Assembly: GCF_017357105.1 (NCBI RefSeq)
Contig: NZ_CP071596.1
Location: 310,001-374,000, forward strand
Source: Natronosalvus caseinilyticus
GTDB taxonomy: Archaea > Halobacteriota > Halobacteria > Halobacteriales > Natrialbaceae
DNA length: 64,000 nt
Reading direction: 5' to 3'
Below the pieces are notes generated by a model. That model made no database searches. It worked only from the letters and a program-made list of their open reading frames with translations, and had not been told where the DNA came from. Of the stretch, positions 1-16,951 are shown one piece after another (position 1 is the stretch's first letter; each line of letters begins with the position of its first letter). The translations under genes were made by a program, and so were the position numbers.

Positions 1-696
1 GATGAGAAGTGGGGGATGAGTCGGACATCAGAGCAGTCTAAACGCCTTGAGGAGGACGAAAATTACGCTGTGACGGAAAAAGATGTCCGTCTCATGGAAG
101 AAAACGTAAACCAACACCGGATACGTGACCAACTGATAATTCGCTTACTCTGGCAGACCGGTATTAGAAGAGGTGAAGCGTCCAATTTGCTAATATCAGA
201 CGTATGCCGTGACAAAAGGGAGATTACAATCAGGAAAAAAGTGGCGAAATATGGTAAGAAACGGATGGTGGCCTACCAATCGTCGTTAGATGGTCTATTG
301 ACCGAGTGGTTAGACTACGGATATCGTGAAGAGATGGCAGCAGGTTATGACCACAACCATCTACTGGTCGGTGAACGAGGCGCACCACTATCTGGCGACC
401 GAATCAACGAAATTGTCTACGAATCAGCGGACCGCGCTGGAATTAACCGGAAAATATACGCTGACGCAAATGCCGGAACGAATGAAAGCGGCGACCCTAA
501 ACCTAACCGTTGGAAAATCACGGCTCACAATATCCGTCACGGGTATGGAACGTACCTTGTGAACGAAACGGATGCTGGAATCTGGGAAGTCTCAAAGCAA
601 CTCGGACACGCCTCAGTATCAATTACTGAGGATATTTATGTTGAGGATGACCCGCGCGCCGGGATTGACCATGCCCATAAATACGGACCTGACTGA
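1..696 (+). CDS. Tyrosine recombinase / integrase (XerC/D-like), N-terminus possibly outside window
   Basis: Catalytic domain of a tyrosine site-specific recombinase, which cuts and rejoins DNA at attachment sites. Counting from the ATG at 16, the signature residues are the first arginine in TGIRRGE (about R51), HNIR (H171 and R174), LGHAS (H198) and the tyrosine nucleophile near Y208, followed by a short tail. From the ATG at 16 it would be 226 residues, short for a full integrase, and the frame stays open to base 1, so the N-terminal arm-binding/SAM-like domain probably lies upstream of the window. It most likely mobilises the AT-rich element that follows. The family is certain; the specific target site is unknown. 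Confidence 0.88.
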   Translation, partial: DEKWGMSRTSEQSKRLEEDENYAVTEKDVRLMEENVNQHRIRDQLIIRLLWQTGIRRGEASNLLISDVCRDKREITIRKKVAKYGKKRMVAYQSSLDGLLTEWLDYGYREEMAAGYDHNHLLVGERGAPLSGDRINEIVYESADRAGINRKIYADANAGTNESGDPKPNRWKITAHNIRHGYGTYLVNETDAGIWEVSKQLGHASVSITEDIYVEDDPRAGIDHAHKYGPD

Positions 697-1714: not shown

Positions 1715-2665
1715 ATGAGTTTAACACACGACAACCCGGCCGAGGAACAGTCCGATAACGACAGCAGCAGCGACATACACAACGTCTGGGTCGAATTCAA
1801 GGACCGCCTCGACAACGTTGAGGACAATCCTGCGACCACTGGAAAGCTCGCGTCAGAATTCGCGAGGAACCTCGCGACAGCACACGTCTACGATGGTGCC
1901 GACAGCGTGGTCATTGACAGCTTGCTCGGGCAGTTCGCACGGAATGCTAACGTTCAAAAAGGTAAGCTCGAAGAGACGTATGAGACCTACGTCGAAACCC
2001 TAGAAGCCGAAGCAGAGGCAGACAAGGAAGAGAACGCTGATAATGACGGTATAGTCGTCATCTCCCCGGATAAGCTCCTGACAAATCACGTGGCAAAGGT
2101 CATCAAGTACTGTCCTACTGATGCGAGTGCCGACGCGCGTTATCTCTGGGTGTTCGAGGACGGTGAGACGATGGAGACTAAACGGCAGCACCTCGCCCTG
2201 AATTCATTCAGCGACGAAGCCCACGACCAACTTGGTCGAATCGTCTCCGACAACACGTCTGATGATTGTGACCTTCCGTGGCGAACGTTCGTGAAGCTAT
2301 TCATTGAGCGGCATAAGGAGGAACGCGAAGAGAAAGGGGACCGGTCCTACGCTGTCGAAGACCTGCGTGCCGTCATTGAACAGCGTCCGGCCACTACTGA
2401 AAAAGACGACGCAGCCATGTCGAGCTTACCGTGGGTCAATGAGGACGAAGACGGTGTCCTTTACGTTCCCAGCGATATCGTCCAGCGTGTCCTCATCGAC
2501 TATGATACCATCAATGCGCGCGATTTACAGGTGGAACTTGACGAAAGAGGCGTTAAGCTCGGTAACGTAAAGCAGACCTCGGCCGCCGGAACACTCGTCC
2601 GGTTCTGGCCTCTTACGCGCAACTTTGCAGACGTCTCTCTCGAGGAGTGTGATGACGATGAATGA
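1715..2665 (+). CDS. Hypothetical protein of replication-type operon, 316 aa
   Basis: Not recognised. It is acidic with a charged, disordered start (about residues 1-25), then mostly helical sequence. The last 80 residues (from SLPWVNEDE) look like a small winged-helix/primase-C-terminal type domain, ending with LVRFWPLTR. Its end overlaps the start of the UvrD-like helicase gene, and that gene overlaps the primase gene, so the three are translationally coupled. The context suggests a role in replication or copy control of the element, perhaps a loader or DNA-binding partner; this is inference from position. Confidence 0.6.
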   Translation: MSLTHDNPAEEQSDNDSSSDIHNVWVEFKDRLDNVEDNPATTGKLASEFARNLATAHVYDGADSVVIDSLLGQFARNANVQKGKLEETYETYVETLEAEAEADKEENADNDGIVVISPDKLLTNHVAKVIKYCPTDASADARYLWVFEDGETMETKRQHLALNSFSDEAHDQLGRIVSDNTSDDCDLPWRTFVKLFIERHKEEREEKGDRSYAVEDLRAVIEQRPATTEKDDAAMSSLPWVNEDEDGVLYVPSDIVQRVLIDYDTINARDLQVELDERGVKLGNVKQTSAAGTLVRFWPLTRNFADVSLEECDDDE

Positions 2666-4457
2666 TGGGGTCGAGGTCCCACGATACCCTATCGTAGGTT
2701 GTGAAGATGTCCCTATTACCGAATCGGCGAAAATAAATGGGCCACCGGGAACTGGAAAAACAACACAAGGTCTGTGCAGAGTACAGTGTCTCGTAGCGGA
2801 GGAGGGTTACGACGTAGACGACGTCACGTGGATAACCTACCGACGCTCGCTCGCAGATGACCTCATTGAGCAAATGGTTGACTGGGGACTTATCGAGGAA
2901 AAACAATTGATTGACCCCCAACACGGCGCTACGAAACAAATCAGCACCGCTCACGCGGTCTGTTATCGCCTCCAACGAGATGAATTCCAAAATCGCCGTA
3001 CACCATCATGGGATGATTATCGGAGATTCTGTGACGAATACTACTCAGTTCCGTATTCGACCCCCGTATCCTCTGGTTCGAAACCCCGTGGTGAGACTCT
3101 CTTTGGCGTCTACTATTGGCTCAAGAACAATCGGAAGAGCATGCTGGAGGCGACAGACTGTGACCGGTATATGGACCTCATGGAGATATGGCCGACGTCA
3201 CCGTCGCTTCAGCGATTCGAGACCGACTGGGAGGGTTTCAAGGAGCAAGAAAGTTTAGTCGATTATCATGAATACCTCGAACGGGCTCTGGAGCGCAGTA
3301 TTACTCCCGAGACGGATATTGTGGTCATTGACGAATACCACGACGCGTTCCCGCTCTTACACGCTCTGGCGAAGGAATGGATAAACGACGCTAAGACAGC
3401 AATAGTCCTTGGCGACCCACAGCAAGTAGTCAACCACCACGAAGGTGCGTCACCTGCATTCTTCGAGGAACTCGACCTCCCCGAGATACATCTGATGAAG
3501 ACTCACCGGGTCCCCAAATTGTTGTGGAATGCCGCTTCGAACGTTCTGAAGGGGTACCACACCCCGCACACCCCTGATTTCGCCTCCTCATACGAAGGAA
3601 ACGCACTCGACGAGGTACACGCACCGACGTTCTGGTACGACCAGCAAACGAATACGTGGGAAGCGCCCACTGGCCAACGCGGTTCACCAGATTCCCTCAT
3701 CGAACGCTACGTTGAAGCAGGAGAACAGTCACTGTTCCTCGTTAGAGCGCGGTTCCAACAGCACGGAATCGCAGCAGGTTTCAAAGACACTGGAATTATA
3801 TTCTGCGCTCAGGAACGGTCTGCGGGCTGTTGGCATCAGGATAACCGGAAGCGCCACCTGTACAATGCGCTCAAGCGTCTCGAAGGATACGATGAGAATA
3901 CAGCCGTCTATCTCCGGGGGCCAGAGGTCCAAGAACTGTTGCACTATACCCGTGCGGAAGATTTGGAATATAATCACTCGACCATTGAGACGGTCGCCAA
4001 CTCACGGTGGATGCGGAACTCCGTTGTCCATGTCAATGCAATAGACGACCTCGTCACCGACTCGTGGTGGAACCGATACACGCGAGGTGAGACATCGGTT
4101 GCCTTTCTTGTCGAACGGGAGGGTGAACACGCACTCCCGCGCGCTGAATTAATGGCTGCACTGGCCCGGAACGCTGAACCCACGGTTGATGTGGAGAGGG
4201 AAGGTGACGGGCTCGCGAACGCACCGACCATTATGACGATACACGCGAGCAAAGGCACTGAAGCAGACCGAGTGTTCGTCTACGATGGTGTCACCAAGCG
4301 AATTCGCCGCGAAACACGGAAAAACATCCGAGCAGACGCTAATGAAGATAGGACGTGGTATGTGGCTCTCACGAGGGCATCGAAACAAACAATAGTCGTT
4401 CGTGGAGCGTTCGAATTCATGTCTAGCCACCTTCCATCGAAGGGAGTATTAACATGA
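2652..4457 (+). CDS. UvrD/Rep-type superfamily 1 DNA helicase, 601 aa
   Basis: An ATP-driven DNA helicase. Walker A NGPPGTGKTT lies at about residues 29-38. Walker B is VVIDEYHDAF, the DEYHD corresponding to DEFQD of UvrD. GDPQQ is motif III, THRVPK resembles motif IV, TIHASKGTEADRVF is motif V and YVALTRASKQ is motif VI. I chose the ATG at 2652 because GAGGAG sits four bases before it; an in-frame ATG at 2625 lies well inside the preceding gene. It overlaps the upstream gene by 14 bases and the primase by ATGA. It is somewhat short for UvrD because the 1B/2B subdomains are reduced, as is common on archaeal mobile elements. It likely works with the primase. Confidence 0.85.
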   Translation: MTMNDGVEVPRYPIVGCEDVPITESAKINGPPGTGKTTQGLCRVQCLVAEEGYDVDDVTWITYRRSLADDLIEQMVDWGLIEEKQLIDPQHGATKQISTAHAVCYRLQRDEFQNRRTPSWDDYRRFCDEYYSVPYSTPVSSGSKPRGETLFGVYYWLKNNRKSMLEATDCDRYMDLMEIWPTSPSLQRFETDWEGFKEQESLVDYHEYLERALERSITPETDIVVIDEYHDAFPLLHALAKEWINDAKTAIVLGDPQQVVNHHEGASPAFFEELDLPEIHLMKTHRVPKLLWNAASNVLKGYHTPHTPDFASSYEGNALDEVHAPTFWYDQQTNTWEAPTGQRGSPDSLIERYVEAGEQSLFLVRARFQQHGIAAGFKDTGIIFCAQERSAGCWHQDNRKRHLYNALKRLEGYDENTAVYLRGPEVQELLHYTRAEDLEYNHSTIETVANSRWMRNSVVHVNAIDDLVTDSWWNRYTRGETSVAFLVEREGEHALPRAELMAALARNAEPTVDVEREGDGLANAPTIMTIHASKGTEADRVFVYDGVTKRIRRETRKNIRADANEDRTWYVALTRASKQTIVVRGAFEFMSSHLPSKGVLT

Positions 4458-5926
4458 CCCGGAACATCGACTGGGAGGCTGTAGGAGACCGAGTACGAGA
4501 GAAAACAGACGACCCGATGACTCCAGTTTCTTACGAAGTACTCTCCGATGCACTTTGCGACGTTGAACAGGACATCGGCCTCCCCGGAGGCTACATTGAG
4601 AATGCTGTCTGTGAGGGTATTCTGAAAGAACATCGAGGCGGTTCTGATGCTACGTACAGTTTCAACCTCAATACACGCCAAGAGAACAATAATAATGACA
4701 AGGAGAAGGTTCCCGACCCAATCAAGACGGGGGAGGTTGACCTTCCGAGCGTACTAACGGTTGAAGACGACCCTGAGTGGCCCGAGTATATGGCCTATCG
4801 AAACAATTGGGTACTTGGGCTGTATGGCGAAAAACAGCCGCGAGCACCGTGGCAGGGCTCTGGTCTCTACCCATGCAAATGGAAAAGTACCCTCCGTGGA
4901 GATGAGAGACCGGAGACCAGCTTCGATGCTGTCTGCCAGTGGGTCAAGCTCGTGAATGGGTCTTATCGAAACGGTCTCTCCCAACCCGACAACACGGACT
5001 ACGGAAGAGCAGTCCCTGCGTATCAACTCCCACCTAGCGAGGACTGGTTGGATGAGAACCGAGTCCTGTTGTTCATCGATTGGGACGATGTTCGCGACCC
5101 TGAAACTGGGGAGATAATCGAAGAATGCCTCGAATGGCTGGAAAAGCTGAACTCAGTTACCGAGGTCTCGTCGAGTGGGACTGGTCTACACACGTTCGTT
5201 GTCGCGACAAAGATGAGTATCAATTCACTCGCCGAAGACCTACATACTGAGGGGAAAGTCGAGATATACCAAACAAAGCGTTTTGCAAGCATGACTGGGG
5301 AATTTATCGCGGAACTCCCTAGTGATGTCGCTGAAGCGGAATACGTCGTTGAAGAACTCATTGACGAATATCACGAATTCAATAAGACGGCCGACGCGTA
5401 CATGGAGGCTGACGCAAACGAAGTTTCGAACAGTGAGTTCAACCAGTTTGGGGCAAGTTCGGGAGAGTATTCACCATACTACGCGGTAAACTGTATGAAT
5501 CTCATCATTGAGCCGCACAGAGTCGGGTCGGAGATACGTGGTGGACACCCGGAACACGGTGCGAACTCACGGATGAATAATATCGCAGTAACCGGCGACG
5601 GTGAAATATGGAGATGCTACCAAGATGAACACAGAAGCGGAGGGAACGCTCTTCATCTAGTCGCCGTATGTGAGGGGTATATTTCCTGTAGTGAAGCAGG
5701 CTCTGGCTGTTTGAAGAACCTCTCTGATGTCGAGTTCACACGGCTCTGTATGGACGCTCGAGACTACTACGATGGCTTCACCTCGGAAATGAAGCCACCC
5801 TCCCGCGCACTCCTCGGTGCCGCTAAAGCAGTCGGACTTGCGTCTGGGTCGGCTGACGAGTTCGATGCTACTCTCTATGACATCGTTCGTGACGTCTACG
5901 ACAATAACTTGTCCAAAGATATCTGA
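4454..5926 (+). CDS. PrimPol-type primase (archaeo-eukaryotic primase superfamily), 490 aa
   Basis: Likely primes or copies DNA of the element. The acidic motif FIDWDD (D209, D211, D212), the SSGTGLH motif (240-246), EIY (270-272) and SMTG (279-282) match the metal-binding and nucleotide-binding motifs of AEP/PrimPol enzymes of plasmids and viruses. A later segment resembles a primase zinc finger: GGHPEHGANS (H365, H368), WRCYQDEH (C388, H393) and further cysteines near 412-419. The first 90 residues look like a winged-helix adaptor plus a polar linker. It starts at ATGA, four bases overlapping the helicase. The superfamily is well supported; the exact subfamily is uncertain. Confidence 0.8.
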   Translation: MTRNIDWEAVGDRVREKTDDPMTPVSYEVLSDALCDVEQDIGLPGGYIENAVCEGILKEHRGGSDATYSFNLNTRQENNNNDKEKVPDPIKTGEVDLPSVLTVEDDPEWPEYMAYRNNWVLGLYGEKQPRAPWQGSGLYPCKWKSTLRGDERPETSFDAVCQWVKLVNGSYRNGLSQPDNTDYGRAVPAYQLPPSEDWLDENRVLLFIDWDDVRDPETGEIIEECLEWLEKLNSVTEVSSSGTGLHTFVVATKMSINSLAEDLHTEGKVEIYQTKRFASMTGEFIAELPSDVAEAEYVVEELIDEYHEFNKTADAYMEADANEVSNSEFNQFGASSGEYSPYYAVNCMNLIIEPHRVGSEIRGGHPEHGANSRMNNIAVTGDGEIWRCYQDEHRSGGNALHLVAVCEGYISCSEAGSGCLKNLSDVEFTRLCMDARDYYDGFTSEMKPPSRALLGAAKAVGLASGSADEFDATLYDIVRDVYDNNLSKDI

Positions 5927-7080: not shown

Positions 7081-7470
7081 CTACTTCCGCGCTACAGCAT
7101 GTGTTGCACTCATTGGTCGAGGTTCTTCGACGAACATCTGACCAATGTCTAGGTAGACCCCGCCTTCACTCCGTTCTATACGCACACGGAACTCCACATC
7201 GTCTACGAGCGTGCCCTCAACCAAAAACTGCACAGCATCCATCGACCCAAGGGACTGAGTGGTTCGAAGCATTTGACGGAGGTCGGTGAGGATATCGTTT
7301 CGTTCCTCCTCTACTGCATTATAGAGAAGGTCGTCAAGGCCAGTGACCGTGACTGGGGTCTCTACATCCTCGTCGGCAGCTACCCGGCGGAAGAATTCCA
7401 GCGCAGCTAGTTCACTCTTGGTGCCAGCCTCGCGTTCCGTCGTGATGTTGTAACCGGGATGGAGTGTCAT
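7081..7470 (-). CDS. Unknown protein, last gene of the BREX-like operon, 129 aa
   Basis: Not recognised. It starts two bases after the stop codon of the DUF1156 methylase, so it belongs to the same transcript as the ATPase, PglZ-like protein and methylase. The sequence has a helical, acidic N-terminal half (ELAALEFFRRVAADED, DLRQMLRTTQSL) and a strand-rich C-terminal half (VDDVEFRVRIERSEGGVYLDIG). It has no cysteine cluster, no membrane helix and no catalytic signature I can name. It may be an accessory or specificity subunit of the defence system. It does not resemble BrxA, BrxB or BrxF as I know them. Confidence 0.7.
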   Translation of the reverse strand: MTLHPGYNITTEREAGTKSELAALEFFRRVAADEDVETPVTVTGLDDLLYNAVEEERNDILTDLRQMLRTTQSLGSMDAVQFLVEGTLVDDVEFRVRIERSEGGVYLDIGQMFVEEPRPMSATHAVARK

Positions 7471-7472
7471 GG

Positions 7473-10016
7473 CTAGAACTGGCTGAGGCTCATCTCCATC
7501 ACATTCTCATAGCGTTCATCGTCGGTAACATCAGCCATAAATTCAGCTAGTTCTTGAAGGTCGTCATTCTTCCATTCTTTGAGATACTCGGTCGTGTTCT
7601 GGTCGGTCTTGTAAAGATGATAGAGGTACTGTACCTTGTCAATATCTAATAAAGCATCGCTGCCCTTGCCATTATTATTGAGCTTGGAATCAATGTAGTT
7701 GACGCGTTCGTCCGCGATTACGGGCTCTTTCTTGTCACGTGGTCCTTTCACGAGTTTCTCGTCTTCAAGGTCGCTAACGTTCAGATTCTTGGCAAGAAGG
7801 TGTTTGTTCAGGTCATCGAATTTCTCCCATCCGCGCCGGTAGAACGCCGCGTATGCCTGTGTGATAGAATCAATACTTGACGGCAAATTGACCGAGCTTT
7901 CAAGAACCTGTTCAATGACTGAATCGACTGTATCAAGAGCTTCGTCAATACCAACTTGCTCACCTTCTGAGTACACATGCGGGTAGTGCTTTGAGTAGTA
8001 GTACATACACTTCCCACGAAGAATGACACCAAGGTCTGCCAGTGAAAGAGACTGATGACGTTTTCGTTCAGTATCCGCGATGTTCTGCAATTCGAAGAAT
8101 AAGTCTTGACGGAGTTCGTCAAGAGTAGTCTCATTCTCCGTGTCTTCCTTATTTGCGAATATTAGGATGTCGTACTCTGCATTGTCTAGATTGGTGATGT
8201 GGGGATTGTTGGACCGCTCAGATTGGACAGGATATGCGGCAGTAACCGTAAATCCACTATCAATGATAGCTTGTAGAATCACGGACCATGCTTCATTTTC
8301 GTTATGGTGATACGTGAACACCATTTCACCATCATCTTTTAAGACTCGGTGACATTCTGAGAACACATTTGATAGACTTGATATAAAGAACTGCTCGCTT
8401 TTGCCAGATTTACTGTTTGCAACAATCTCCCTAGCTTTTGGAACTAATTCTGGTTCGAATTCCTTATAATCCTCTTTCAATGCTTCACGCAGCCACACAT
8501 AAAAATAATCAGAGAGTTCACTATATTGGACATTATCATAATATGGTGGGTCAGTAATCACATAATCTACACTCTCATCTGGTTCCTCTAATCTTTCAGA
8601 CGTTTTGCTGTGCAGTGAAACCAGCCGGTCTTCCGAGATGGATTCGTTCTGGATATGTCGCTTATCAATATCTCCTGTTTGAGTGTTCTTCACCTTCTCA
8701 AATGGACGGTCACAGTAATCCTTAGCATCGTATACTTTTTCAAAATGATTCTCTAAGGCTGTGATATTTTGCGCCCGGTTTAGTGGGTTCCCCTCAACTG
8801 GTTGAACTACAGGAATATACGCGTGGCGCTGGAACACATTTAATGAGGTCTTCCGGCCAGTATTCCACTTACAGAGTTTCCCGTTTCTAGTAAGCGCTGC
8901 AGATATTGACGTTATAAGGAATTCTCGGACATTTGGGTTCTCGACCTTTTGGACACGTTTGAGAAGTTTCCCAAACGTGAGGAGGTGTCTTTTTGTGAAT
9001 AGTTCCGAGTACCGTTCATAATTATAATTTGTAAGAGCCCGTGTTTTATCACCCTCTGGTATCTTTTGAGAGGGTATTGGGAGTGAGTCTTTTATATTCT
9101 CAAACTCACTCTCAGCTTCCTGTATTGTAGCATAATCTTCTTCATCTGGTTCTTTAAATTTCTTCTTCCCAGAAGGCGTTCGGTAATATATGGCAAAATA
9201 GTCGAATTCTGGCTTGCTATTATTTCTTTGGAGGGTCTCCTTCACGTCATTTTTATGCCCATTAGAGCAAGTGAATTTGCCATATCCATAATTGCCATCG
9301 CTTGGGTTGAATTCTTTACCACAATTGCTACATGTTTCTGACTCCCCAATTTTATGGTTTAGGTATTCAATCCGGTTATCACACTCATCATTCTTACAAT
9401 AGATAACAGCAGGTGAAGTCTTCTTTTTCTGTCCTAATTCATAACGCGGGAATAAATGGACAGTTTCATCACAGGACAGACAGTTAAGTTTCTGAGTTTG
9501 GAGGGAATAGAGTATTTCACACTCTCGTCCCGTGTCAGGGTCTTTGGTTGTATAGAATCGGTCCATATCTTTCCGAACATCATCAAGCAATCTATTGAAT
9601 TCACTTCGTAATTTATCTAAATCAACCTCATCAATAGATTTCTTAGCTGTCCACCAAGCAACCGGATTCAGTTCATATCCTATAGTTTGTGCCCCCAATC
9701 TATTTAATTCAAACAATGTTGTTCCTCCGCCAACAAAAGGGTCAAGAATAACTTCATCTTCAAATCTATCTCCTTGGTTTTGGAAAAACAATCCATCAAA
9801 AGAGCCCGAACTAGTTTCTCGTAGAATATCGTCCGCTTCTACGTTGTCATCAGTGAGCGTCGCTAGGCCTAATGTACGGAAAGTAGTACCCGGCCGTCTA
9901 GCCCACCATTTGTGAATTGAATAAATCGGTCGGTAGTAATTTCGATTGATTGCTTCTCGTTCGGCGAACCAGTCTATAGCTTCTAACGGAAGTTTGTCCC
10001 AAGTTTCCATTTTCAT
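7473..10016 (-). CDS. DUF1156 adenine-type DNA methyltransferase, PglX-class, 847 aa
   Basis: A large DNA methylase of the type found in BREX type 3-like and related loci. The N-terminus has the DUF1156 signature HKWWARRP (about 35-42). DPFVGGGTT (92-100) followed by GYELNP is the SAM-binding motif I, and ITDPPYYDN (about 488) is the catalytic motif of N6-adenine/N4-cytosine amino-methylases. Between these, about residues 174-255 hold zinc-ribbon pairs (CLSC, CKNDEC, CSNC, CSNGH). In BREX the methylase marks host DNA and is also needed for defence. It starts by ATGA overlap inside the end of the PglZ-like gene. Its A+T content is high even for this element, pointing to recent transfer. Confidence 0.88.
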   Translation of the reverse strand: MKMETWDKLPLEAIDWFAEREAINRNYYRPIYSIHKWWARRPGTTFRTLGLATLTDDNVEADDILRETSSGSFDGLFFQNQGDRFEDEVILDPFVGGGTTLFELNRLGAQTIGYELNPVAWWTAKKSIDEVDLDKLRSEFNRLLDDVRKDMDRFYTTKDPDTGRECEILYSLQTQKLNCLSCDETVHLFPRYELGQKKKTSPAVIYCKNDECDNRIEYLNHKIGESETCSNCGKEFNPSDGNYGYGKFTCSNGHKNDVKETLQRNNSKPEFDYFAIYYRTPSGKKKFKEPDEEDYATIQEAESEFENIKDSLPIPSQKIPEGDKTRALTNYNYERYSELFTKRHLLTFGKLLKRVQKVENPNVREFLITSISAALTRNGKLCKWNTGRKTSLNVFQRHAYIPVVQPVEGNPLNRAQNITALENHFEKVYDAKDYCDRPFEKVKNTQTGDIDKRHIQNESISEDRLVSLHSKTSERLEEPDESVDYVITDPPYYDNVQYSELSDYFYVWLREALKEDYKEFEPELVPKAREIVANSKSGKSEQFFISSLSNVFSECHRVLKDDGEMVFTYHHNENEAWSVILQAIIDSGFTVTAAYPVQSERSNNPHITNLDNAEYDILIFANKEDTENETTLDELRQDLFFELQNIADTERKRHQSLSLADLGVILRGKCMYYYSKHYPHVYSEGEQVGIDEALDTVDSVIEQVLESSVNLPSSIDSITQAYAAFYRRGWEKFDDLNKHLLAKNLNVSDLEDEKLVKGPRDKKEPVIADERVNYIDSKLNNNGKGSDALLDIDKVQYLYHLYKTDQNTTEYLKEWKNDDLQELAEFMADVTDDERYENVMEMSLSQF

Positions 10017-10951
10017 TTACCTCTATCCGCGTTAGTGTTGATTCTCAATACAGGAGTCATACACTCTGGCAGGCTAATCCCACCGTGCATGACTTTTTTC
10101 GTTGCACCCCGCGTCGTCCATTTGTAGTGTCCCTGTACCACATAGTGGTTGTCTATTCGTTTAATAATGTTCGCCTGTTCTAGTAATCGGAATGCCTGAC
10201 TGTTCGAGACCTTAGTGAACCGGCTGCTGAACTTGCTACTCAACGATACTTCCTCCTCATCGGAGAGGGTATACGGTGAATTGCCGAGATGATTGATGTA
10301 ACCGTGGTCACTTGTTACGAGGAATTCAGTGTGTACACTCTCGTAGATGATATTCTCTAAAAGTGCCTTTACGTCTTCGTAGATGTCTCCAATCTCTTCG
10401 GTAGAGTAATTCCCTTTGAGTGCCCCTTCAAGTCGTTCATCAGGATGACGTGTCCATACGAATTCAGGTGACGTGTCCGGGAGTTGGGGTACATCAAGGT
10501 CACCAATATATCGGTAGTCATCGCGTGTGACAACCGACGGACTATGCGCGTCAAACCATTCTCGGCAAATGAACTGAGTCTCACTCGGCAGGCCCTCAAT
10601 AGGTGCCCATGAAAGCGATACGTCCCAGTCGTGTTCCTCGGTAAGTTCCTGTTCAAGCCGGAATCCCTCACGAAGGCTGAGAGCGTCCATGATGACACCA
10701 CAACCCTCTTCCAATTCTGTAATGGGGTGGTCACCCATCTGGTTGCGGAGGTCTTCATAGACTTGGGGATATAGTTTCGCTAGTTCACGCTCAAGCAGGC
10801 GTGTCTGGTATTCCGAGTCTGCGAGGTGCCGGTCGCCAAGTGCGTCTTTGTTTGCCCAAATACGGCGAAGGCATTCGAATACGCCATCAAGGATGTTGTC
10901 TTCGCGAAGCAGCGCTTCGAACTCCGACCGATTGTACAATCCGTTACTCAT
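10013..10951 (-). CDS. pglZ: Compact PglZ-like (alkaline-phosphatase fold) protein, 312 aa
   Basis: A short form of PglZ, the phosphatase-fold component of Pgl and BREX systems. It keeps the family's landmarks: a metal-site aspartate in GVIMDALSLREG (D89), TSDHGYI (D215, H216) and HGGISLPECMTPV (H289). It is only 312 residues, whereas BREX PglZ proteins are usually 600 or more, so the extra N- and C-terminal domains are missing. It lies between the DUF499 ATPase (8-base overlap) and the DUF1156 methylase (4-base overlap), the expected company for PglZ. The first 80 residues are helical. The symbol is by homology of motif and context; activity is unproven. Confidence 0.78.
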   Translation of the reverse strand: MSNGLYNRSEFEALLREDNILDGVFECLRRIWANKDALGDRHLADSEYQTRLLERELAKLYPQVYEDLRNQMGDHPITELEEGCGVIMDALSLREGFRLEQELTEEHDWDVSLSWAPIEGLPSETQFICREWFDAHSPSVVTRDDYRYIGDLDVPQLPDTSPEFVWTRHPDERLEGALKGNYSTEEIGDIYEDVKALLENIIYESVHTEFLVTSDHGYINHLGNSPYTLSDEEEVSLSSKFSSRFTKVSNSQAFRLLEQANIIKRIDNHYVVQGHYKWTTRGATKKVMHGGISLPECMTPVLRINTNADRGK

Positions 10952-13733
10952 TCTTGTCCACCTGAAGACTGACGGACAGAGACGCCTGTTCGGGTACGTT
11001 CAGGTCCCAGACGAGACTCAAGAAGGACTGTCGACTCATCGGTTCGTCCGGGTCGATAACAAAGGTCTCGTCCAATGAAACTTTCTCGTCAAGCGCGCCC
11101 GCGCTAATTCCATAGTCCGTCAAATCGTCCGACGTCAGGGTTCCGCTCACAGAAATTTCTGCTTCGTGGATGTCCCATTCAATGCCGATTTCTCGCTCGA
11201 GCGTATCAATGAGGTCTGGTTTGTTGTCTGCATCAAGTGTCCCCATGATGGGGTGGGACTGAATCTTCGGCCCGACTTCTTCCTCAATGCCAAACGTGTC
11301 GAGCATCTCGTCGGTTGACCCGCCTTCAACAGAGACCTTCCCTTCGCGGATGTCGCTTGCATCGAACTCGAACCCGCATTCACAGGACGTTCCTTCTAGC
11401 TCGCTCCCGCACTGAGGGCATTCGAATGCGGTCGAAGCTCCCTCACCACCTGTCTTGGTTCCTCCGGTCGATGTCGCCGTCCCACTGGTTTCGGAGCCAT
11501 CACCACCGTCTATTGACCCAGTCTTGTCGATAGTGATGGTCTCTTCTTCCTCGTCATCATCATCTTGTTCGAGGTACTGCTGGTGAACAAGATTAGTATC
11601 GTTTCCGAGGCTTCCAACACGTTCATCAAAGTAGTTACCTGCCTGAATAACACCATCTCGGCAGAGAGAATCGATAGCCTCTTCCAGTTCATCTTCGCTT
11701 GTCAGTGTCGTGTAGGAAGGATTCCGATAGAAGTCGTTTTTGAGGTGTTCGTACTGAATTCCGCTCGCATCTGCATCTTTGACCGCATTTTTGACCTCCG
11801 ACCGCAGTTGGCTGCTGTCTGGTTTGACGACCTCCTTCGTTGCAGTGTAGAAATCCACATTCCCCCCACTCGGGAGGTCCTGCGGGAACAGCCCGCGCTT
11901 AGTCGATGTGTGGATGGTACCGTACTTGTCCCGGACGCGGTCACGGAGGTTCTGGTAGTTCTGGTCGTGAATTTCCTCGAATCCCTCGGGGAGGACTTCC
12001 TCTTCCCGTTTGAGTTGCTCGCCTGCAACAACCTTCCGTGCAAGTTCGATGATTCCCGTGTTGGTGTCGACACTCGACCGCTTTTCGGGGGTGACTAAGA
12101 CAAGCGTATTATTGAATTCCCGTTCTTGACCTGTCGTAAGTTCCTCGAAGTCTTCATCATAGTTGCGCTTTGCACCGAGCGAGACCGCGATTTTCAGCGC
12201 TTTAGTGTCGGGAATATCCTGCTCAGTGTTGACCGGGTCAAGAATGTAGACGTTGTTGTGACCATCGAAGAGGTCTTCCCGGGTGAGCGACTCAACGCGA
12301 TGAATCGCGTCATGTTTATGAATGTCCTCTGATTTCTTCTCGATGCGTGCTGCTGGGTTTTCGTCTACGTCGAACGCGTACTCGCCATTGATACGATGGA
12401 TGTGCCATGCGTGGCCGTAGACCTCCTCAGTGAACGTCTGTACGATGCGGTGAGCGTTGATTCCTTTTCGCATCGTGCCCATCAGCATCTGGCGTTTATT
12501 TGCTCCTTCCTCGCCTGCCCGCGCGAGACTATGAAGCAATACGATATTGAGGAGTTCTTCATGGAATTCTCCAAAACTACCATCGGGCTTCTGGATTCGG
12601 TGATAGTCGTTCACGTATTTGCCGACGAGTTCGGAATCGATGTATTGGAAGCGGTCGGTGTACGTGAATACATCAACATCGCCCGTCAGGATGAAGTCTA
12701 CGGATGTGTAGTTGTCTCGGAGAATCTCAGCGAGGAACCGGAGAAGGCCTCGAGCATCCGAACTGATGCGCTGTTCCGAATACTTCTCCATCAATAGTTG
12801 GAGCAAGACCGGGTGGAACGGATAGTATCGTTCGATGCGGTCTTGCATGTCGTGATAGTCCTCAAGTTGAATCTGGTCGTTCTGTCGGTAGACGTCCGTG
12901 TATTCCTTTGCAAGGGAAGAAACACCTCCCGAGTCGGTGACTGTTCCGACGAGACGGTGAAGGATAAAGTCGATTTTCTCGTCGCGACGGGAAGAGAGGT
13001 CGTGTGTAAACGGATTTGTCCGCTGCGTAATAGCTTGGACGTCCGCGTCTTCGTAGAGTAACGAGACGAACACGCTCAGCCGCGTGTCATCTCTGCCAGC
13101 AGCTTCAAGAAGGTTCTGAAGGAACGCAAGATTGTCATCTTTATACTCGGAGCGATTCGCCATCCCGAACCAACGCTCGAACTCATCAATGAGAATGAGG
13201 GTTGGCTCATTTTCAAGCGTGTCCCGAATCTGATGAACAGTTGGAAGGTCTGTGTCGCCAGCCCACTGGTCGATGCCCAGATAATCACCAACTGCTTCGG
13301 AAAGGCGGTTATAATCCTTATCGAGATTGAACATTTGGAGGGCCGCAGACCGCGTTTCATCGGGTATATCTACGTCAATCCCTCGCTGGTCTAGCCAGCG
13401 TTGTCCAAGGTTCGGGGAGTTGAACAGGTGATAGACGACGAGTTCGATGTGACTTTTCCCGCTCCCGTAGCCACCACCAACGATTTGACCGCCCTCGGAA
13501 AAACCGTCATTGCCATTGAGCTTCTGAGTCGTGTTTTCGATAATGGTCGTGAGCGTCTCCGTAGGATACGTGATTTCGAGGATACGCTCCGCGTCCTGCT
13601 CTGGCGAATCGCGGTCGTCATAGAGATTGTAGAGTGAAACTTCGTCGAGGAGGCCGGAAGGGTCGATACTTCCATCAGAATCTTGTATCTCATCACTTGG
13701 CGAAATATAATCCGCAATGACTCCCTCAGCCAT
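10944..13733 (-). CDS. DUF499 / BrxC-PglY-like AAA+ ATPase, 929 aa
   Basis: The large P-loop ATPase of a BREX-like operon. Walker A GGGYGSGKSH lies at about 86-95 and Walker B LILIDEFERW at about 179-188, both in the form typical of DUF499 proteins. A zinc ribbon (CPQC and CECG) is near 767-790, after an acidic Gly/Ser/Thr-rich linker, and the C-terminus is beta-rich. I chose the ATG at 13733 because GAGGTG lies six bases before it; the frame extends to 13778 without a ribosome site. It is the first gene of the operon. In BREX, BrxC/PglY is essential for defence and probably forms a DNA-bound complex with PglX and PglZ. Confidence 0.85.
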   Translation of the reverse strand: MAEGVIADYISPSDEIQDSDGSIDPSGLLDEVSLYNLYDDRDSPEQDAERILEITYPTETLTTIIENTTQKLNGNDGFSEGGQIVGGGYGSGKSHIELVVYHLFNSPNLGQRWLDQRGIDVDIPDETRSAALQMFNLDKDYNRLSEAVGDYLGIDQWAGDTDLPTVHQIRDTLENEPTLILIDEFERWFGMANRSEYKDDNLAFLQNLLEAAGRDDTRLSVFVSLLYEDADVQAITQRTNPFTHDLSSRRDEKIDFILHRLVGTVTDSGGVSSLAKEYTDVYRQNDQIQLEDYHDMQDRIERYYPFHPVLLQLLMEKYSEQRISSDARGLLRFLAEILRDNYTSVDFILTGDVDVFTYTDRFQYIDSELVGKYVNDYHRIQKPDGSFGEFHEELLNIVLLHSLARAGEEGANKRQMLMGTMRKGINAHRIVQTFTEEVYGHAWHIHRINGEYAFDVDENPAARIEKKSEDIHKHDAIHRVESLTREDLFDGHNNVYILDPVNTEQDIPDTKALKIAVSLGAKRNYDEDFEELTTGQEREFNNTLVLVTPEKRSSVDTNTGIIELARKVVAGEQLKREEEVLPEGFEEIHDQNYQNLRDRVRDKYGTIHTSTKRGLFPQDLPSGGNVDFYTATKEVVKPDSSQLRSEVKNAVKDADASGIQYEHLKNDFYRNPSYTTLTSEDELEEAIDSLCRDGVIQAGNYFDERVGSLGNDTNLVHQQYLEQDDDDEEEETITIDKTGSIDGGDGSETSGTATSTGGTKTGGEGASTAFECPQCGSELEGTSCECGFEFDASDIREGKVSVEGGSTDEMLDTFGIEEEVGPKIQSHPIMGTLDADNKPDLIDTLEREIGIEWDIHEAEISVSGTLTSDDLTDYGISAGALDEKVSLDETFVIDPDEPMSRQSFLSLVWDLNVPEQASLSVSLQVDKNE

Positions 13734-14052
13734 TATCATCACCTCTGGCGGTAATCCCACAAGTTCTAACCATATCAAACTCCATTCTAGTCACGATTTA
13801 TAGTTGTTTTGAGTAATGGCTTCTGGAAGAGACCTGCATATAGATAGTATTAGTCTCGCACTTCATTCACGGCAGTGGCTATACAGTCATCCTCAGCCTC
13901 GCGGTCGAGATACCATTGACGCTATTCATTGTTTTGATGGATATTAGAAAGAGTCTGACGCGTGCAGTTCTAGCTTCATTTCAACCGAATTAACCACGAA
14001 CAGACAGCGGATTGTCTTTCTCGAAGTATATTCCGACTATATTATGTGGATT
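13734..14052. other. Promoter region between Kiwa-like and BREX-like operons
   Basis: No complete gene. The minus-strand TATA box at 13796-13802 probably drives the BREX-like operon. A short minus-strand frame ending in TAA at 13850-13852 reads like the C-terminal 23 codons of a haloarchaeal protein (REAEDDCIATAVNEVRD) but is preceded by an in-frame TAG, so it may be the relic of a lost gene. The rest is AT-rich with no clear structure. Confidence 0.5.
13796..13802 (-). promoter_or_regulatory. TATA box (TATAAAT) for BREX-like operon
   Basis: On the minus strand TATAAAT is centred 66 bases before the chosen ATG at 13733. Archaeal transcription would start about 25 bases downstream, near 13772, leaving a leader of about 40 bases that contains the GAGGTG ribosome site. 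Inference from sequence. Confidence 0.5.
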
Positions 14053-15033
14053 TTACTCGTTCTGGACCCGCTGTTTACCACCAGTTGTGATATAGGGAGT
14101 TTCCGTAAGCCGGGAATCAACGTGGTCTTCGTTAAAAAGACTGAGAACTTTCCATACGTCACGCTTGTCGCGCATTTTCAATGCCTCTTCACCATTGTCG
14201 TTTGAAACAACATTGAGTTCGACTTCAAAATCGTCAATAATTCCCTTAGCAGCACCCATGTCCATTTCTTCGTATACCCCTAGCTGCTTTACTTCGTACA
14301 TTTTTCGCATTGCATCCGGATACGACTTGGCTGCCTCCTTGAACAGGTCAAAATTAGCAATGGGTACGTCACCGTCTTCGAGGTCGTCAAACACGTCTTC
14401 TGCTACGCGTTCGAATTCATCCATATAATCGAAAATCTTCTCGAAATTCCGCTGGTTGAAGATTAGTATCGTGTCAGCGTAGTAGAGACAGTCAATTCGA
14501 TTTGGAATTGCCATCACTGTCTCATCAATGGGTGTGTACACTTCGTCGGTGATACGAAGACGAAGCCGCGATTTTCGGCCGAGAATTTGTCTCCGCGAGT
14601 AAAATTGGAACGCAATCACCATATCATTGGAATCATGTAGTCGGATAGCTTGGAACGAGGGTATAGGAGACTCTTCGTAGTCAGTCCCTCGAAATCGCTC
14701 TCCTTCGATAAGACGTTCGAAGTTCTCGAATTGGGGGATATCAGCCGTAGACACGTACTGGATTAGGTCCTCATCACGGTCCTTGTTCGAAATAGAGTAG
14801 GAATCCGTCTCCTTGTTGTTGTTAGCAAGGGCCGTTCTCTTATTTTCCACCTTCTCGTAGACCAGTTCCTCAAGCTCACTAAGAACACGTGATTTGGCCA
14901 TCACGCGCTTGAAACTATAGTCGTGGTTCTCCGCATCGGATTCTTCATCCCGAGCTAAAATGAGGTCAACTCCCTTATCAGTTGACCGCTGGAAGACCTC
15001 ATTCACTTCATTTAGCGTTTCCTCAACAGTCAT
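14053..15033 (-). CDS. kwaB: KwaB-like protein (DUF4868) of a Kiwa defence system, 326 aa
   Basis: Resembles KwaB, the cytosolic DUF4868 partner of Kiwa. The central and C-terminal part carries the family's typical string of features: AIPNRIDCLYYADTILIFN, then NFEKIFDYMDEFERVAEDV, and a C-terminal segment ending in strand-rich sequence. The length (326) is close to the roughly 315 residues of known KwaB. It directly follows and overlaps by one base (TAATG) a four-helix membrane protein, exactly the Kiwa gene order. Known Kiwa proteins form a membrane complex that senses phage and blocks phage DNA replication or expression. Assignment is from motif memory plus context; no alignment was run. 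Confidence 0.7.
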   Translation of the reverse strand: MTVEETLNEVNEVFQRSTDKGVDLILARDEESDAENHDYSFKRVMAKSRVLSELEELVYEKVENKRTALANNNKETDSYSISNKDRDEDLIQYVSTADIPQFENFERLIEGERFRGTDYEESPIPSFQAIRLHDSNDMVIAFQFYSRRQILGRKSRLRLRITDEVYTPIDETVMAIPNRIDCLYYADTILIFNQRNFEKIFDYMDEFERVAEDVFDDLEDGDVPIANFDLFKEAAKSYPDAMRKMYEVKQLGVYEEMDMGAAKGIIDDFEVELNVVSNDNGEEALKMRDKRDVWKVLSLFNEDHVDSRLTETPYITTGGKQRVQNE

Positions 15034-15602
15034 TACTTTACTGTCACATAGACGCCGGTACTTAATTCCACGGTTTTGAGAGAGACTATCTCGTCCTTTA
15101 GCGTCTGTTTGGTTAGGATGAGTCGCTTTCCATTATCGTCTTCTACTTTATAAATATTGTATCGAAAGAATGCTAATACTGGGTTCGCGTATAGTTTGTT
15201 AGAACGGACCTGCACTGCGCCAATCGCTAGGAACAAGATGAGAAATGCGCCGATATTGAACGGGTCTGTGTAATCAAACACGATGAACGGAAAGATGTAT
15301 ACGATAAGATATTCAGTCACCATCTCCGTTTGATTTTCATAGTTTTCGACATCTTCCCGAACGCCTCCTCGACTTCGTTTTAGATGCAGTACCAATAACA
15401 GAAATCCAACCGAAAAGATAGTGAACAGTATCGCGCCAATCGATAGTGCCGACACTTCAACTCCGCCTAATTCATGCAATCCGAATTCAATGCCAAATGT
15501 AGAAAACTTCGCTTCATGTCCACGAAGAGCAACAACCAAGTAGAGAGGCGCGTACGAACTGAAAAAAAGTATCCAGCGCGCCCACTCCTTTACGTTCCCC
15601 AT
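15033..15602 (-). CDS. kwaA: KwaA-like membrane protein of a Kiwa defence system, 189 aa
   Basis: A small membrane protein with four likely helices: ILFFSSYAPLYLVVAL, SIGAILFTIFSVGFLLLVL, EYLIVYIFPFIVF and IGAFLILFLAIGAVQV, followed by a soluble tail of about 50 residues containing NPVLAFFRYNIYKVE. Size, topology and position just before a DUF4868 gene match KwaA, the membrane anchor of Kiwa. I use the ATG at 15602 (MGNVKEW); a TTG at 15632 would add ten residues. Neither has a strong ribosome site. Together with kwaB it forms a two-gene operon; the low GC content agrees with acquisition by transfer. Confidence 0.7.
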   Translation of the reverse strand: MGNVKEWARWILFFSSYAPLYLVVALRGHEAKFSTFGIEFGLHELGGVEVSALSIGAILFTIFSVGFLLLVLHLKRSRGGVREDVENYENQTEMVTEYLIVYIFPFIVFDYTDPFNIGAFLILFLAIGAVQVRSNKLYANPVLAFFRYNIYKVEDDNGKRLILTKQTLKDEIVSLKTVELSTGVYVTVK

Positions 15603-15718
15603 TGGGTCTTTTTCTTGGGACTGCTTGCACAAGTCGCTTCTGATAGTCCTGCCATGTGACAGAATCTCCGGAATTGCAAGTCATCGTATTACAGGTAATA
15701 AAGCCCGAGCTAAGGGGA

Positions 15719-16561: not shown

Positions 16562-16951
16562 TTAGATGACGCGGTTCTGCAGGTAGTCGAGGTGTTTCGC
16601 GTTGTAGACGATCTTGACCTCCTCGGACTCGGCAGTACCGATGCAGGTCAGGCGGACGTTCTTGTCCTCGACTTCCTCGTCGCTGAGGATCTGCTGCATG
16701 TCCATCTGGATCTCGCCCTCCTTGATGATGGCCGCACAGTTTGCACAGGCGCCGGCACGGCACGAGAAGGGCCAGTCGTAGCCCTGGGCCTCGGCGGACT
16801 CGAGGATGTACTCGCCCTCGTTGACCTCGAGGGTACCGTAGTCCTCGGCGTCGAAATCGGCGTCGGCGGCTTTTTCGAAGACGTCGTCGTCGTCGACACT
16901 CCATCCCTGGTCGTCCAGTACTTCGTAGTTGAGGTATTCTACCGTGGGCAT
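16562..16951 (-). CDS. Halophilic [2Fe-2S] ferredoxin, 129 aa
   Basis: Plant-type 2Fe-2S ferredoxin, the soluble electron carrier that in haloarchaea takes electrons from pyruvate and 2-oxoglutarate oxidoreductases. The cluster cysteines are in CRAGACANC and in VRLTCIG. The highly acidic N-terminal insertion ([20 protein letters not shown]) is the hallmark of the halophilic form. Length and sequence are typical. It is a single-gene unit with its own terminator. Confidence 0.95.

What the first reader, a model, noticed from the sequence alone, without database searches (positions are those of the whole stretch)
10013..10951. Unusually short PglZ that keeps its metal-site residues
The protein is 312 residues with D89, D215-H216 and H289 at the expected places, but the large extra domains of BREX PglZ are missing. 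It may represent the minimal functional unit.
Basis: partly seen in the sequence, partly recalled or inferred. Interest (0 to 1): 0.65.

Follow-up and report, generated by a model that had tools for sequence, protein, structure and literature searches.

The report
Helicase-free BREX-like operon with mini-PglZ
A short metal-enzyme protein in a salt-loving archaeon is one of four parts of a stripped-down virus-defence operon related to BREX, in which the part that marks the cell's own DNA appears to be swapped between strains like a cassette.

Summary
In detail: the minus-strand gene 10951..10013 encodes a 312-residue PglZ-type protein with D89, D215-H216 and H289. Six are identical in 39 of 39 mini-PglZ sequences; position 175 is E in all 32 haloarchaeal rows. 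Profile-profile comparison and fold search place it with PorX and BREX PglZ, although Pfam PF08665 stays below its cut-off and the model is of middling confidence.

It is the second gene of a tight operon, DUF499 ATPase > mini-PglZ > DUF1156-type N6-methylase > 129-residue protein, complete in 32 of 32 haloarchaeal loci examined. Standalone PglZ with DUF499, methylase and helicase was published in January 2026 as 'Type-3 BREX-Related (BR)'. The haloarchaeal operons differ: no intact BrxHII-like helicase lies beside any of them, and 4 of 24 carrier genomes show no such match anywhere. In one haloarchaeal family the first ~600 methylase residues are exchanged between operons independently of DUF499 and PglZ. 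Best reading: a helicase-free BREX/BR variant with mini-PglZ as its only recognised nuclease candidate and target choice in a swappable methylase module. No function has been tested.

The parts
10013..10951 (-). mini-PglZ, 312 aa, alkaline-phosphatase/NPP superfamily; overlaps the upstream gene by 8 bp and the downstream gene by 4 bp
10685..10687 (-). codon of D89 (matches PorXFj D237, Zn1)
   Evidence: invariant; PorX ligands from PMC10951265
10577..10579 (-). codon of T125 (matches catalytic Thr: PorXFj T271, E. fergusonii PglZ T538)
10427..10441 (-). codons of D171 to E175 (match PorXFj D360 and H364, Zn2; His replaced by Glu)
10304..10309 (-). codons of D215-H216 (match PorXFj D414-H415, Zn1)
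10085..10087 (-). codon of H289 (matches PorXFj H499, E. fergusonii H741, Zn2)
10944..13778 (-). DUF499 AAA+ ATPase (listed from a TTG; an ATG about 13-15 codons in is the likelier start); Walker A GGGYGSGKS and Walker B LILIDE visible (motif names recalled)
   Evidence: PF04465 34.8 bits, cut-off 23; HmaC E 2.3e-13; NCBIfam DUF499_antiphage E 2.2e-17 but under cut-off
7473..10016 (-). N6-adenine-type methylase with DUF1156 N-terminus and zinc-finger-like cysteine clusters
   Evidence: PF01555 and PF06634 above cut-off; HmaB E 1.1e-42, PglXI E 4.3e-32
8217..10016 (-). exchangeable methylase module (aa 1-600); GC3 0.36 against 0.52-0.59 in the rest of the operon
7473..7976 (-). methylase C-terminal part (aa 681-847) whose divergence follows PglZ and DUF499
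7081..7470 (-). 129-aa fourth gene, candidate inactive-STAND (BrxB/BrxF-like) subunit
   Evidence: found in 31 of 31 other haloarchaeal loci; model pLDDT 89.1; weak matches, nearly all AAA+/P-loop, Z up to 4.9

Best explanation
The gene encodes the PglZ subunit of a four-gene defence operon of the BREX/DUF499 lineage: DUF499 AAA+ ATPase, standalone mini-PglZ, DUF1156-type N6-methylase and a small inactive-STAND-like protein. Proposed working: (1) the methylase marks self DNA at a short motif read by its N-terminal ~600 residues (inferred; BREX PglX is the published precedent). (2) DUF499, PglZ, the methylase C-terminus and the small protein form the surveillance complex (inferred from co-variation and gene overlap). 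(3) On unmarked virus DNA the ATPase brings PglZ into action, which cuts or nicks DNA, or destroys nucleotides, with a two-metal site of D89, T125, D215, H216 (metal 1) and D171, E175, H289 (metal 2) (site shown by conservation; activity inferred from PorX and E. fergusonii PglZ). It differs from published Type-3 BR systems by lacking the BrxHII-like helicase, so PglZ is the only nuclease candidate recognised and the AAA+ protein the only recognised motor.
For: Operon of four abutting or overlapping genes. DUF499, PglZ and methylase in 31 of 31 other haloarchaeal loci (23 fetched at up to 20 kb; 8 more) and the small gene in 31 of 31. Active-site residues invariant; fold of PorX/PglZ; homology to BREX PglZ; purifying selection. 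Helicase-bearing relatives with the same gene set exist: Methanoperedens L097 and Kiritimatiellae L098, whose helicases score as BrxHI/BrxHII (E 1e-125 and 6e-100), tying the operon to Type-3 BR as described. No helicase match beside 30 of 31 haloarchaeal operons; the other has a C-terminal fragment. 4 of 24 carrier genomes have no match to the L097 helicase at E<=1e-3; the only match in the window's own genome is an HKD+Snf2 protein. DUF499 and PglZ distances correlate r=0.95 in family A (n=19) and 0.96 in family B (n=13); methylase aa 1-600 against PglZ r=-0.005 in A (Mantel p 0.45) but aa 681-847 r=0.75 (p 0.0002). DNA-level island: L034/L032 are 84-98% identical across DUF499 and PglZ, 55-63% over most of the first 1.8 kb of the methylase, 92-95% after it. 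PglX as sole specificity factor of BREX: PMC11341690.
Against: No activity or defence phenotype is known for any member. The Pfam PglZ hit is under cut-off. The PglZ model has mean pLDDT 67.3 and under 50 around T125. The iSTAND call for the small protein is weak: no Foldseek hit at E<=0.001, no VIA Z above 4.9. 20 of 24 carrier genomes have some match to the helicase query elsewhere, so a helicase acting in trans cannot be excluded for most; the Haloarcula japonica fragment (L087) hints that some operons once had one. In family B the methylase module still correlates with PglZ (r=0.62), so exchange there is rarer.
Confidence: 0.72

Rival explanations
1. It is an ordinary Type-3 BR system whose BrxHII-like helicase is simply encoded elsewhere in the genome and works in trans.
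For: 20 of 24 carrier genomes have at least one match to the L097 helicase at E<=1e-3, several to 970-1006-aa ORFs; a BrxHII C-terminal fragment lies a few kb from the operon in Haloarcula japonica.
Against: 4 of 24 genomes (G104, G174, G264, G280) have no match, G280 being one contig and 99% complete; the window's genome has only an HKD+Snf2 protein matching 123 of 1176 HmaA positions. Apart from the fragment, none of the matches lies beside an operon.
Confidence: 0.15
2. PglZ is not the nuclease but a nucleotide or cyclic-oligonucleotide phosphodiesterase that regulates the complex or depletes nucleotides.
For: The closest fold is PorX, a phosphodiesterase of cyclic and linear oligonucleotides; E. 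fergusonii PglZ is inhibited by ATP, and the T538A mutant keeps much of the defence.
Against: E. fergusonii PglZ nicks and linearises dsDNA; no other nuclease was recognised in the operon.
Confidence: 0.25
3. Mini-PglZ is catalytically dead and only a scaffold, because the second metal site has Glu where PorX has His.
For: E175 replaces PorX H364 in 32 of 32 haloarchaeal rows, while L097, L089 and L098 keep His.
Against: The haloarchaeal BREX PglZ aligned also has Glu at that place and the BREX PglZ 9nv3 has Asp (alignment); all other ligands are invariant and dN/dS is low.
Confidence: 0.08

Closest known systems
Type-3 BREX-Related (BR) system (Rakesh & Krishnan, NAR 2026, PMC12839542; abstract, section 33 and passages read)
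   Same: DUF499 ATPase, N6-methylase (some with two 4C zinc fingers), standalone PglZ with intact metal site, small iSTAND gene
   Different: The published type has a BrxHII-like helicase as a core part; the 32 haloarchaeal operons here have no intact one beside them. The small protein is only a weak iSTAND candidate.
Hma / Type-1 BR (HmaA helicase, HmaB methylase, HmaC ATPase)
   Same: HmaB and HmaC are the best PADLOC hits of the methylase and ATPase
   Different: No helicase-nuclease; PglZ present instead
BREX types 1 and 3
   Same: PglZ catalytic domain; AAA+ ATPase plus N6-methylase logic; PglXI-like methylase
   Different: PglZ lacks the ~360 N-terminal and ~95 C-terminal residues; ATPase is DUF499; no BrxA, BrxL or BrxHII in the operon
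PorX (type IX secretion response regulator)
   Same: Best fold match, helical bundle plus PglZ domain (Z 15.2); same ligands except H364 to E
   Different: No receiver domain; defence operon instead of two-component signalling

Membership tests
PglZ domain (PF08665) | Pfam score above gathering cut-off | tested here: not met
   14.8 bits against 25
PglZ domain (PF08665) | homology to known PglZ by profiles (judged here instead of the Pfam cut-off) | tested here: met
   hhalign 98.3%, E 1.4e-14 against 10 long-PglZ rows, two of them the same gene; PADLOC PglZ E 1.2e-08; PDB 9nv3 E 4.6e-07
PglZ domain (PF08665) | two-metal ligands D, T, D-H / D, (H/D/E), H | tested here: met
   with PorX ligands
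PglZ domain (PF08665) | ligands cluster in the three-dimensional model | tested here: inconclusive
   Fold matches PorX and ligands follow strands 84-89, 163-170 and 209-214, but no coordinates to measure and pLDDT <50 at 121-152
Type-3 BR system | DUF499 ATPase | tested here: met
   PF04465 34.8 bits over cut-off 23
Type-3 BR system | N6-methylase of the BrxXI/HmaB kind | tested here: met
Type-3 BR system | standalone active-site PglZ gene in the core locus | tested here: met
Type-3 BR system | BrxHII-like helicase in the core locus | tested here: not met
   no match in 30 of 31 haloarchaeal loci, a fragment in one; in the window's genome only HKD+Snf2
Type-3 BR system | iSTAND gene (82% of published taxa) | tested here: inconclusive
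   129-aa gene always present; predicted topology fits; fold hits weak
BREX (types 1 and 3) | multi-domain PglZ and BrxC-type ATPase | tested here: not met
   312 aa aligning only to residues 363-736 of a BREX PglZ; ATPase matches DUF499, no BrxC family reported
Hma / Type-1 BR | HmaA helicase-nuclease | tested here: not met
   own genome only a partial HmaA match inside an HKD+Snf2 protein
any of these as a defence system | protection against viruses and site-specific methylation | not testable with these tools
   needs experiments

The most novel reading that the evidence does not exclude
Haloarchaea carry a self-sufficient four-gene BREX-like immunity in which mini-PglZ is the only nuclease, no helicase is needed, and the complex takes its target choice entirely from an exchangeable ~600-residue methylase module, so that whole operons change the sequence they defend against by swapping that one cassette.
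Probability: 0.45. Interest if true: 0.68.

Novelty: new variant of a known kind. Interest (0 to 1): 0.5.

Why it matters
The effector of BREX has been a long-standing puzzle (so put in PMC12839542), and PglZ is the leading candidate but sits in six-gene systems with large proteins. A four-gene operon with a 312-residue PglZ and no helicase is the simplest setting found here in which to ask whether PglZ alone carries restriction. The decoupled methylase module gives natural swap pairs (L034/L032, L034/L083) to test whether target choice lies wholly in the methylase. Relatives lie in Halobacterium salinarum and Halorubrum lacusprofundi ATCC 49239 plasmids.

Tried and rejected
Unusual isolated PglZ: rejected, since 24 of 292 haloarchaeal genomes carry a mini-PglZ; a 25th genome matched only through a long PglZ. 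Kiwa as part of the system: KwaA/KwaB lie upstream, but tblastn found neither in any other locus of the set searched, so they are taken as a separate neighbour. Genes beside the operon as hidden partners: no other gene cluster recurred in more than 4 of 23 loci. Internal stops reported in four mini-PglZ loci were the genes' own terminators. The 1283-aa Snf2 frame of the window's genome as cognate helicase: rejected, best PADLOC match is HKD+Snf2. The Glu at position 175 as a mark of this lineage: weakened, because the same genome's BREX PglZ aligns a Glu there. Searches giving nothing: phages (tblastn) and viral contigs. The class and phylum samples and the genome-contig scan (21 loci) are not exhaustive. 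Supplements of PMC12839542 could not be read, so whether its 569 taxa include haloarchaeal operons, with or without helicase, is not known to me. Paper searches for such an operon returned that paper, two others (PMC13326643, PMC3710099) for DUF499 with PglZ, and an Antarctic cyanobacterium paper; of these three I read passages of PMC3710099 and only the listings of the others.

In one search the ORF picker missed PglZ in L039 and L041; it is present. In one search methylase columns were counted on L040. In one search the ten long-PglZ rows include one gene twice (L027 and L051).
Full report
Observation. The gene runs on the minus strand, 10951 to 10013, 312 codons. Against PF08665 alone it scores 14.8 bits, below the cut-off of 25, over only the SDHG stretch; PADLOC PglZ models do better (E 1.2e-08). 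An alignment of 23 relatives, down to 27-30% identity, keeps D89, P122-S123, T125, D171, E175, D215, H216 and H289 in every row. In F. johnsoniae PorX, Zn1 is held by T271, D237, D414, H415 and Zn2 by D360, H364, H499 (PMC10951265, passages); order and spacing match, with E175 in place of H364. In the wider set D89, T125, D171, D215, H216 and H289 are identical in 39 of 39 mini-PglZ rows; position 175 is E in 32 of 32 haloarchaeal rows, H in Methanoperedens, ANME-2 and Kiritimatiellae rows, D in three rows and S in one.

Fold and homology. The AlphaFold2 model has mean pLDDT 67.3 and pTM 0.73, weak at 121-152, which holds T125. Its 15 best Foldseek matches are all PorX or BREX PglZ; VIA-align gives PorX 7pvk Z 15.2 (272 residues, rmsd 4.2) and BREX PglZ 9zn5 Z 13.5, against 7.9 for the first chain of another family. 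The PorX match begins at PorX residue 139, inside the three-helix bundle. Profile-profile comparison of mini-PglZ with ten long-PglZ rows gives 98.3% probability, E 1.4e-14, over 297 columns, with the D, T, D, DH and H motifs aligned. I could not measure ligand distances.

Operon. DUF499 ATPase (13778-10944), mini-PglZ, methylase (10016-7473) and a 129-aa gene (7470-7081) overlap by 8 and 4 bp or lie 2 bp apart. 24 of 292 haloarchaeal genomes carry a mini-PglZ, 13 of a family A (56-75% identity to the window among the 12 others) and 11 of a family B (28-31%); a 25th genome matched only through a long PglZ. The 23 loci other than the window, fetched at up to 20 kb, all hold DUF499 and methylase, PglZ and the 129-aa gene. 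Eight further haloarchaeal loci from the genome-contig scan do too. dN/dS of pglZ is 0.05-0.11 in 11 of 11 close pairs.

Relation to known systems. Rakesh and Krishnan (PMC12839542; abstract, section 33 and passages) describe Type-3 BREX-Related systems: DUF499, N6-methylase, BrxHII-like helicase, standalone PglZ and, in 82% of taxa, an iSTAND. The Methanoperedens locus L097 (DUF499, PglZ, methylase, 126-aa gene, 1092-aa helicase) and the Kiritimatiellae locus L098 (917-aa helicase) fit that description. In haloarchaea the helicase is not there: tblastn with three helicase queries over the fetched loci found nothing beside 30 of 31 haloarchaeal operons, and a 446-aa C-terminal fragment in Haloarcula japonica, beyond an oppositely oriented ORF. 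Genome-wide, 20 of 24 carriers have some match at E<=1e-3, none beside the operon except that fragment, and 4 have none. The window's genome has only a 1269-aa HKD+Snf2 protein. In a DUF499+PglZ tree, family A groups with the ANME-2/Methanoperedens pair and family B with another archaeal sequence, so the two helicase-free families are not sisters. Because a defining part was tested and not met, I do not file the operon as a full Type-3 BR member, but as its helicase-free variant.

The 129-aa protein. It has no Walker A motif in its sequence, a confident model (pLDDT 89.1) with strands and helices in an order like the described iSTAND, including three strands after the 79-83 strand. PDB fold matches are weak but nearly all AAA+/P-loop proteins (best Z 4.9); Foldseek has none at E<=0.001. 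BrxB/BrxF-like is therefore a lead, not a finding.

Methylase exchange. In family A (19 operons) DUF499 and PglZ distances correlate at r=0.95, whereas the methylase does not (0.21). In windows, methylase aa 1-600 shows no relation to PglZ (r=-0.005, Mantel p 0.45), aa 681-847 a clear one (0.75, p 0.0002). Crossed pairs make it plain: L034/L032 have PglZ 93%, methylase C-part 98%, module 57%; L034/L083 have 71%, 72% and 92%. At DNA level the L034/L032 divergence is an island inside the methylase with 84% or more identity before it and 92-95% after it. In the window the module has GC3 0.36 against 0.52-0.59 in the rest of the operon. Family B shows a milder form: module r=0.62, yet L042/L043 have PglZ 55% and module 83%. 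Since a new methylation specificity without a matching change in DUF499/PglZ would make a separately reading restriction complex attack its own genome, I infer that restriction reads its target through the methylase, as shown for BREX PglX (PMC11341690, passages). This is inference; no motif is known.

Mechanism and rivals. PglZ of E. fergusonii needs T538 for nicking and cutting DNA, and the T538A mutant loses about 3 logs of defence but not all of it; PorX cleaves cyclic and linear oligonucleotides (PMC12205998, passages). T125 is the equivalent residue here. I take DNA nicking by PglZ, delivered by the DUF499 ATPase, as likeliest, nucleotide or signal hydrolysis as the main rival, and a helicase in trans as the next.

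Setting. The operon lies in a low-GC element (0.40-0.53 against 0.65) bounded by an 18-bp direct repeat at G000:C1:309029 and window 16562, the second being the 3' end of a 2Fe-2S ferredoxin gene, with a tyrosine integrase, helicase and primase genes and Kiwa genes. The same genome has a full-length BREX-like locus with PglX, an 812-aa PglZ and BrxL on its second contig.

Noticed in passing
G000:C1:309029 (L121:19029-19046) and window 16562-16579: 18-bp direct repeat at both GC transitions marks an integrative element of about 17.5 kb inserted at the 3' end of a 2Fe-2S ferredoxin gene; a tyrosine integrase is at 16-696 (+).
   Followed up: partly
window 14053-15632 (-): Kiwa genes kwaB and kwaA, overlapping by one base, directly upstream of the operon; absent from the other loci examined.
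   Followed up: partly
window 1715-5926 (+): UvrD/Dda-like helicase and primase-like genes of the carrying element; a distant UvrD relative (22% identity) also lies next to the family B operon in L049.
   Followed up: partly
L051 (G000 contig 2), 993-12788: Second, full-size BREX-like locus in the same genome: PglX 1278 aa, PglZ 812 aa, BrxL 675 aa.
   Followed up: partly
L097:6699-7391, L089:6693-7385, L075:231-923, L073:5359-6069: A RadC/JAB-domain gene (about 230 aa; Pfam-tested in L097, the others look alike by sequence) directly upstream of DUF499 in four non-haloarchaeal operons; not seen in haloarchaea.
   Followed up: no
L074:13278-14865: In this archaeal operon a HerA/FtsK-looking ATPase (by eye) follows the small fourth gene, where a helicase would be expected.
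   Followed up: no
L087:14117-19225 and L033: Haloarcula japonica: truncated BrxHII-like helicase C-terminus downstream of the operon, beyond a large opposite-strand ORF also found in L082.
   Followed up: partly
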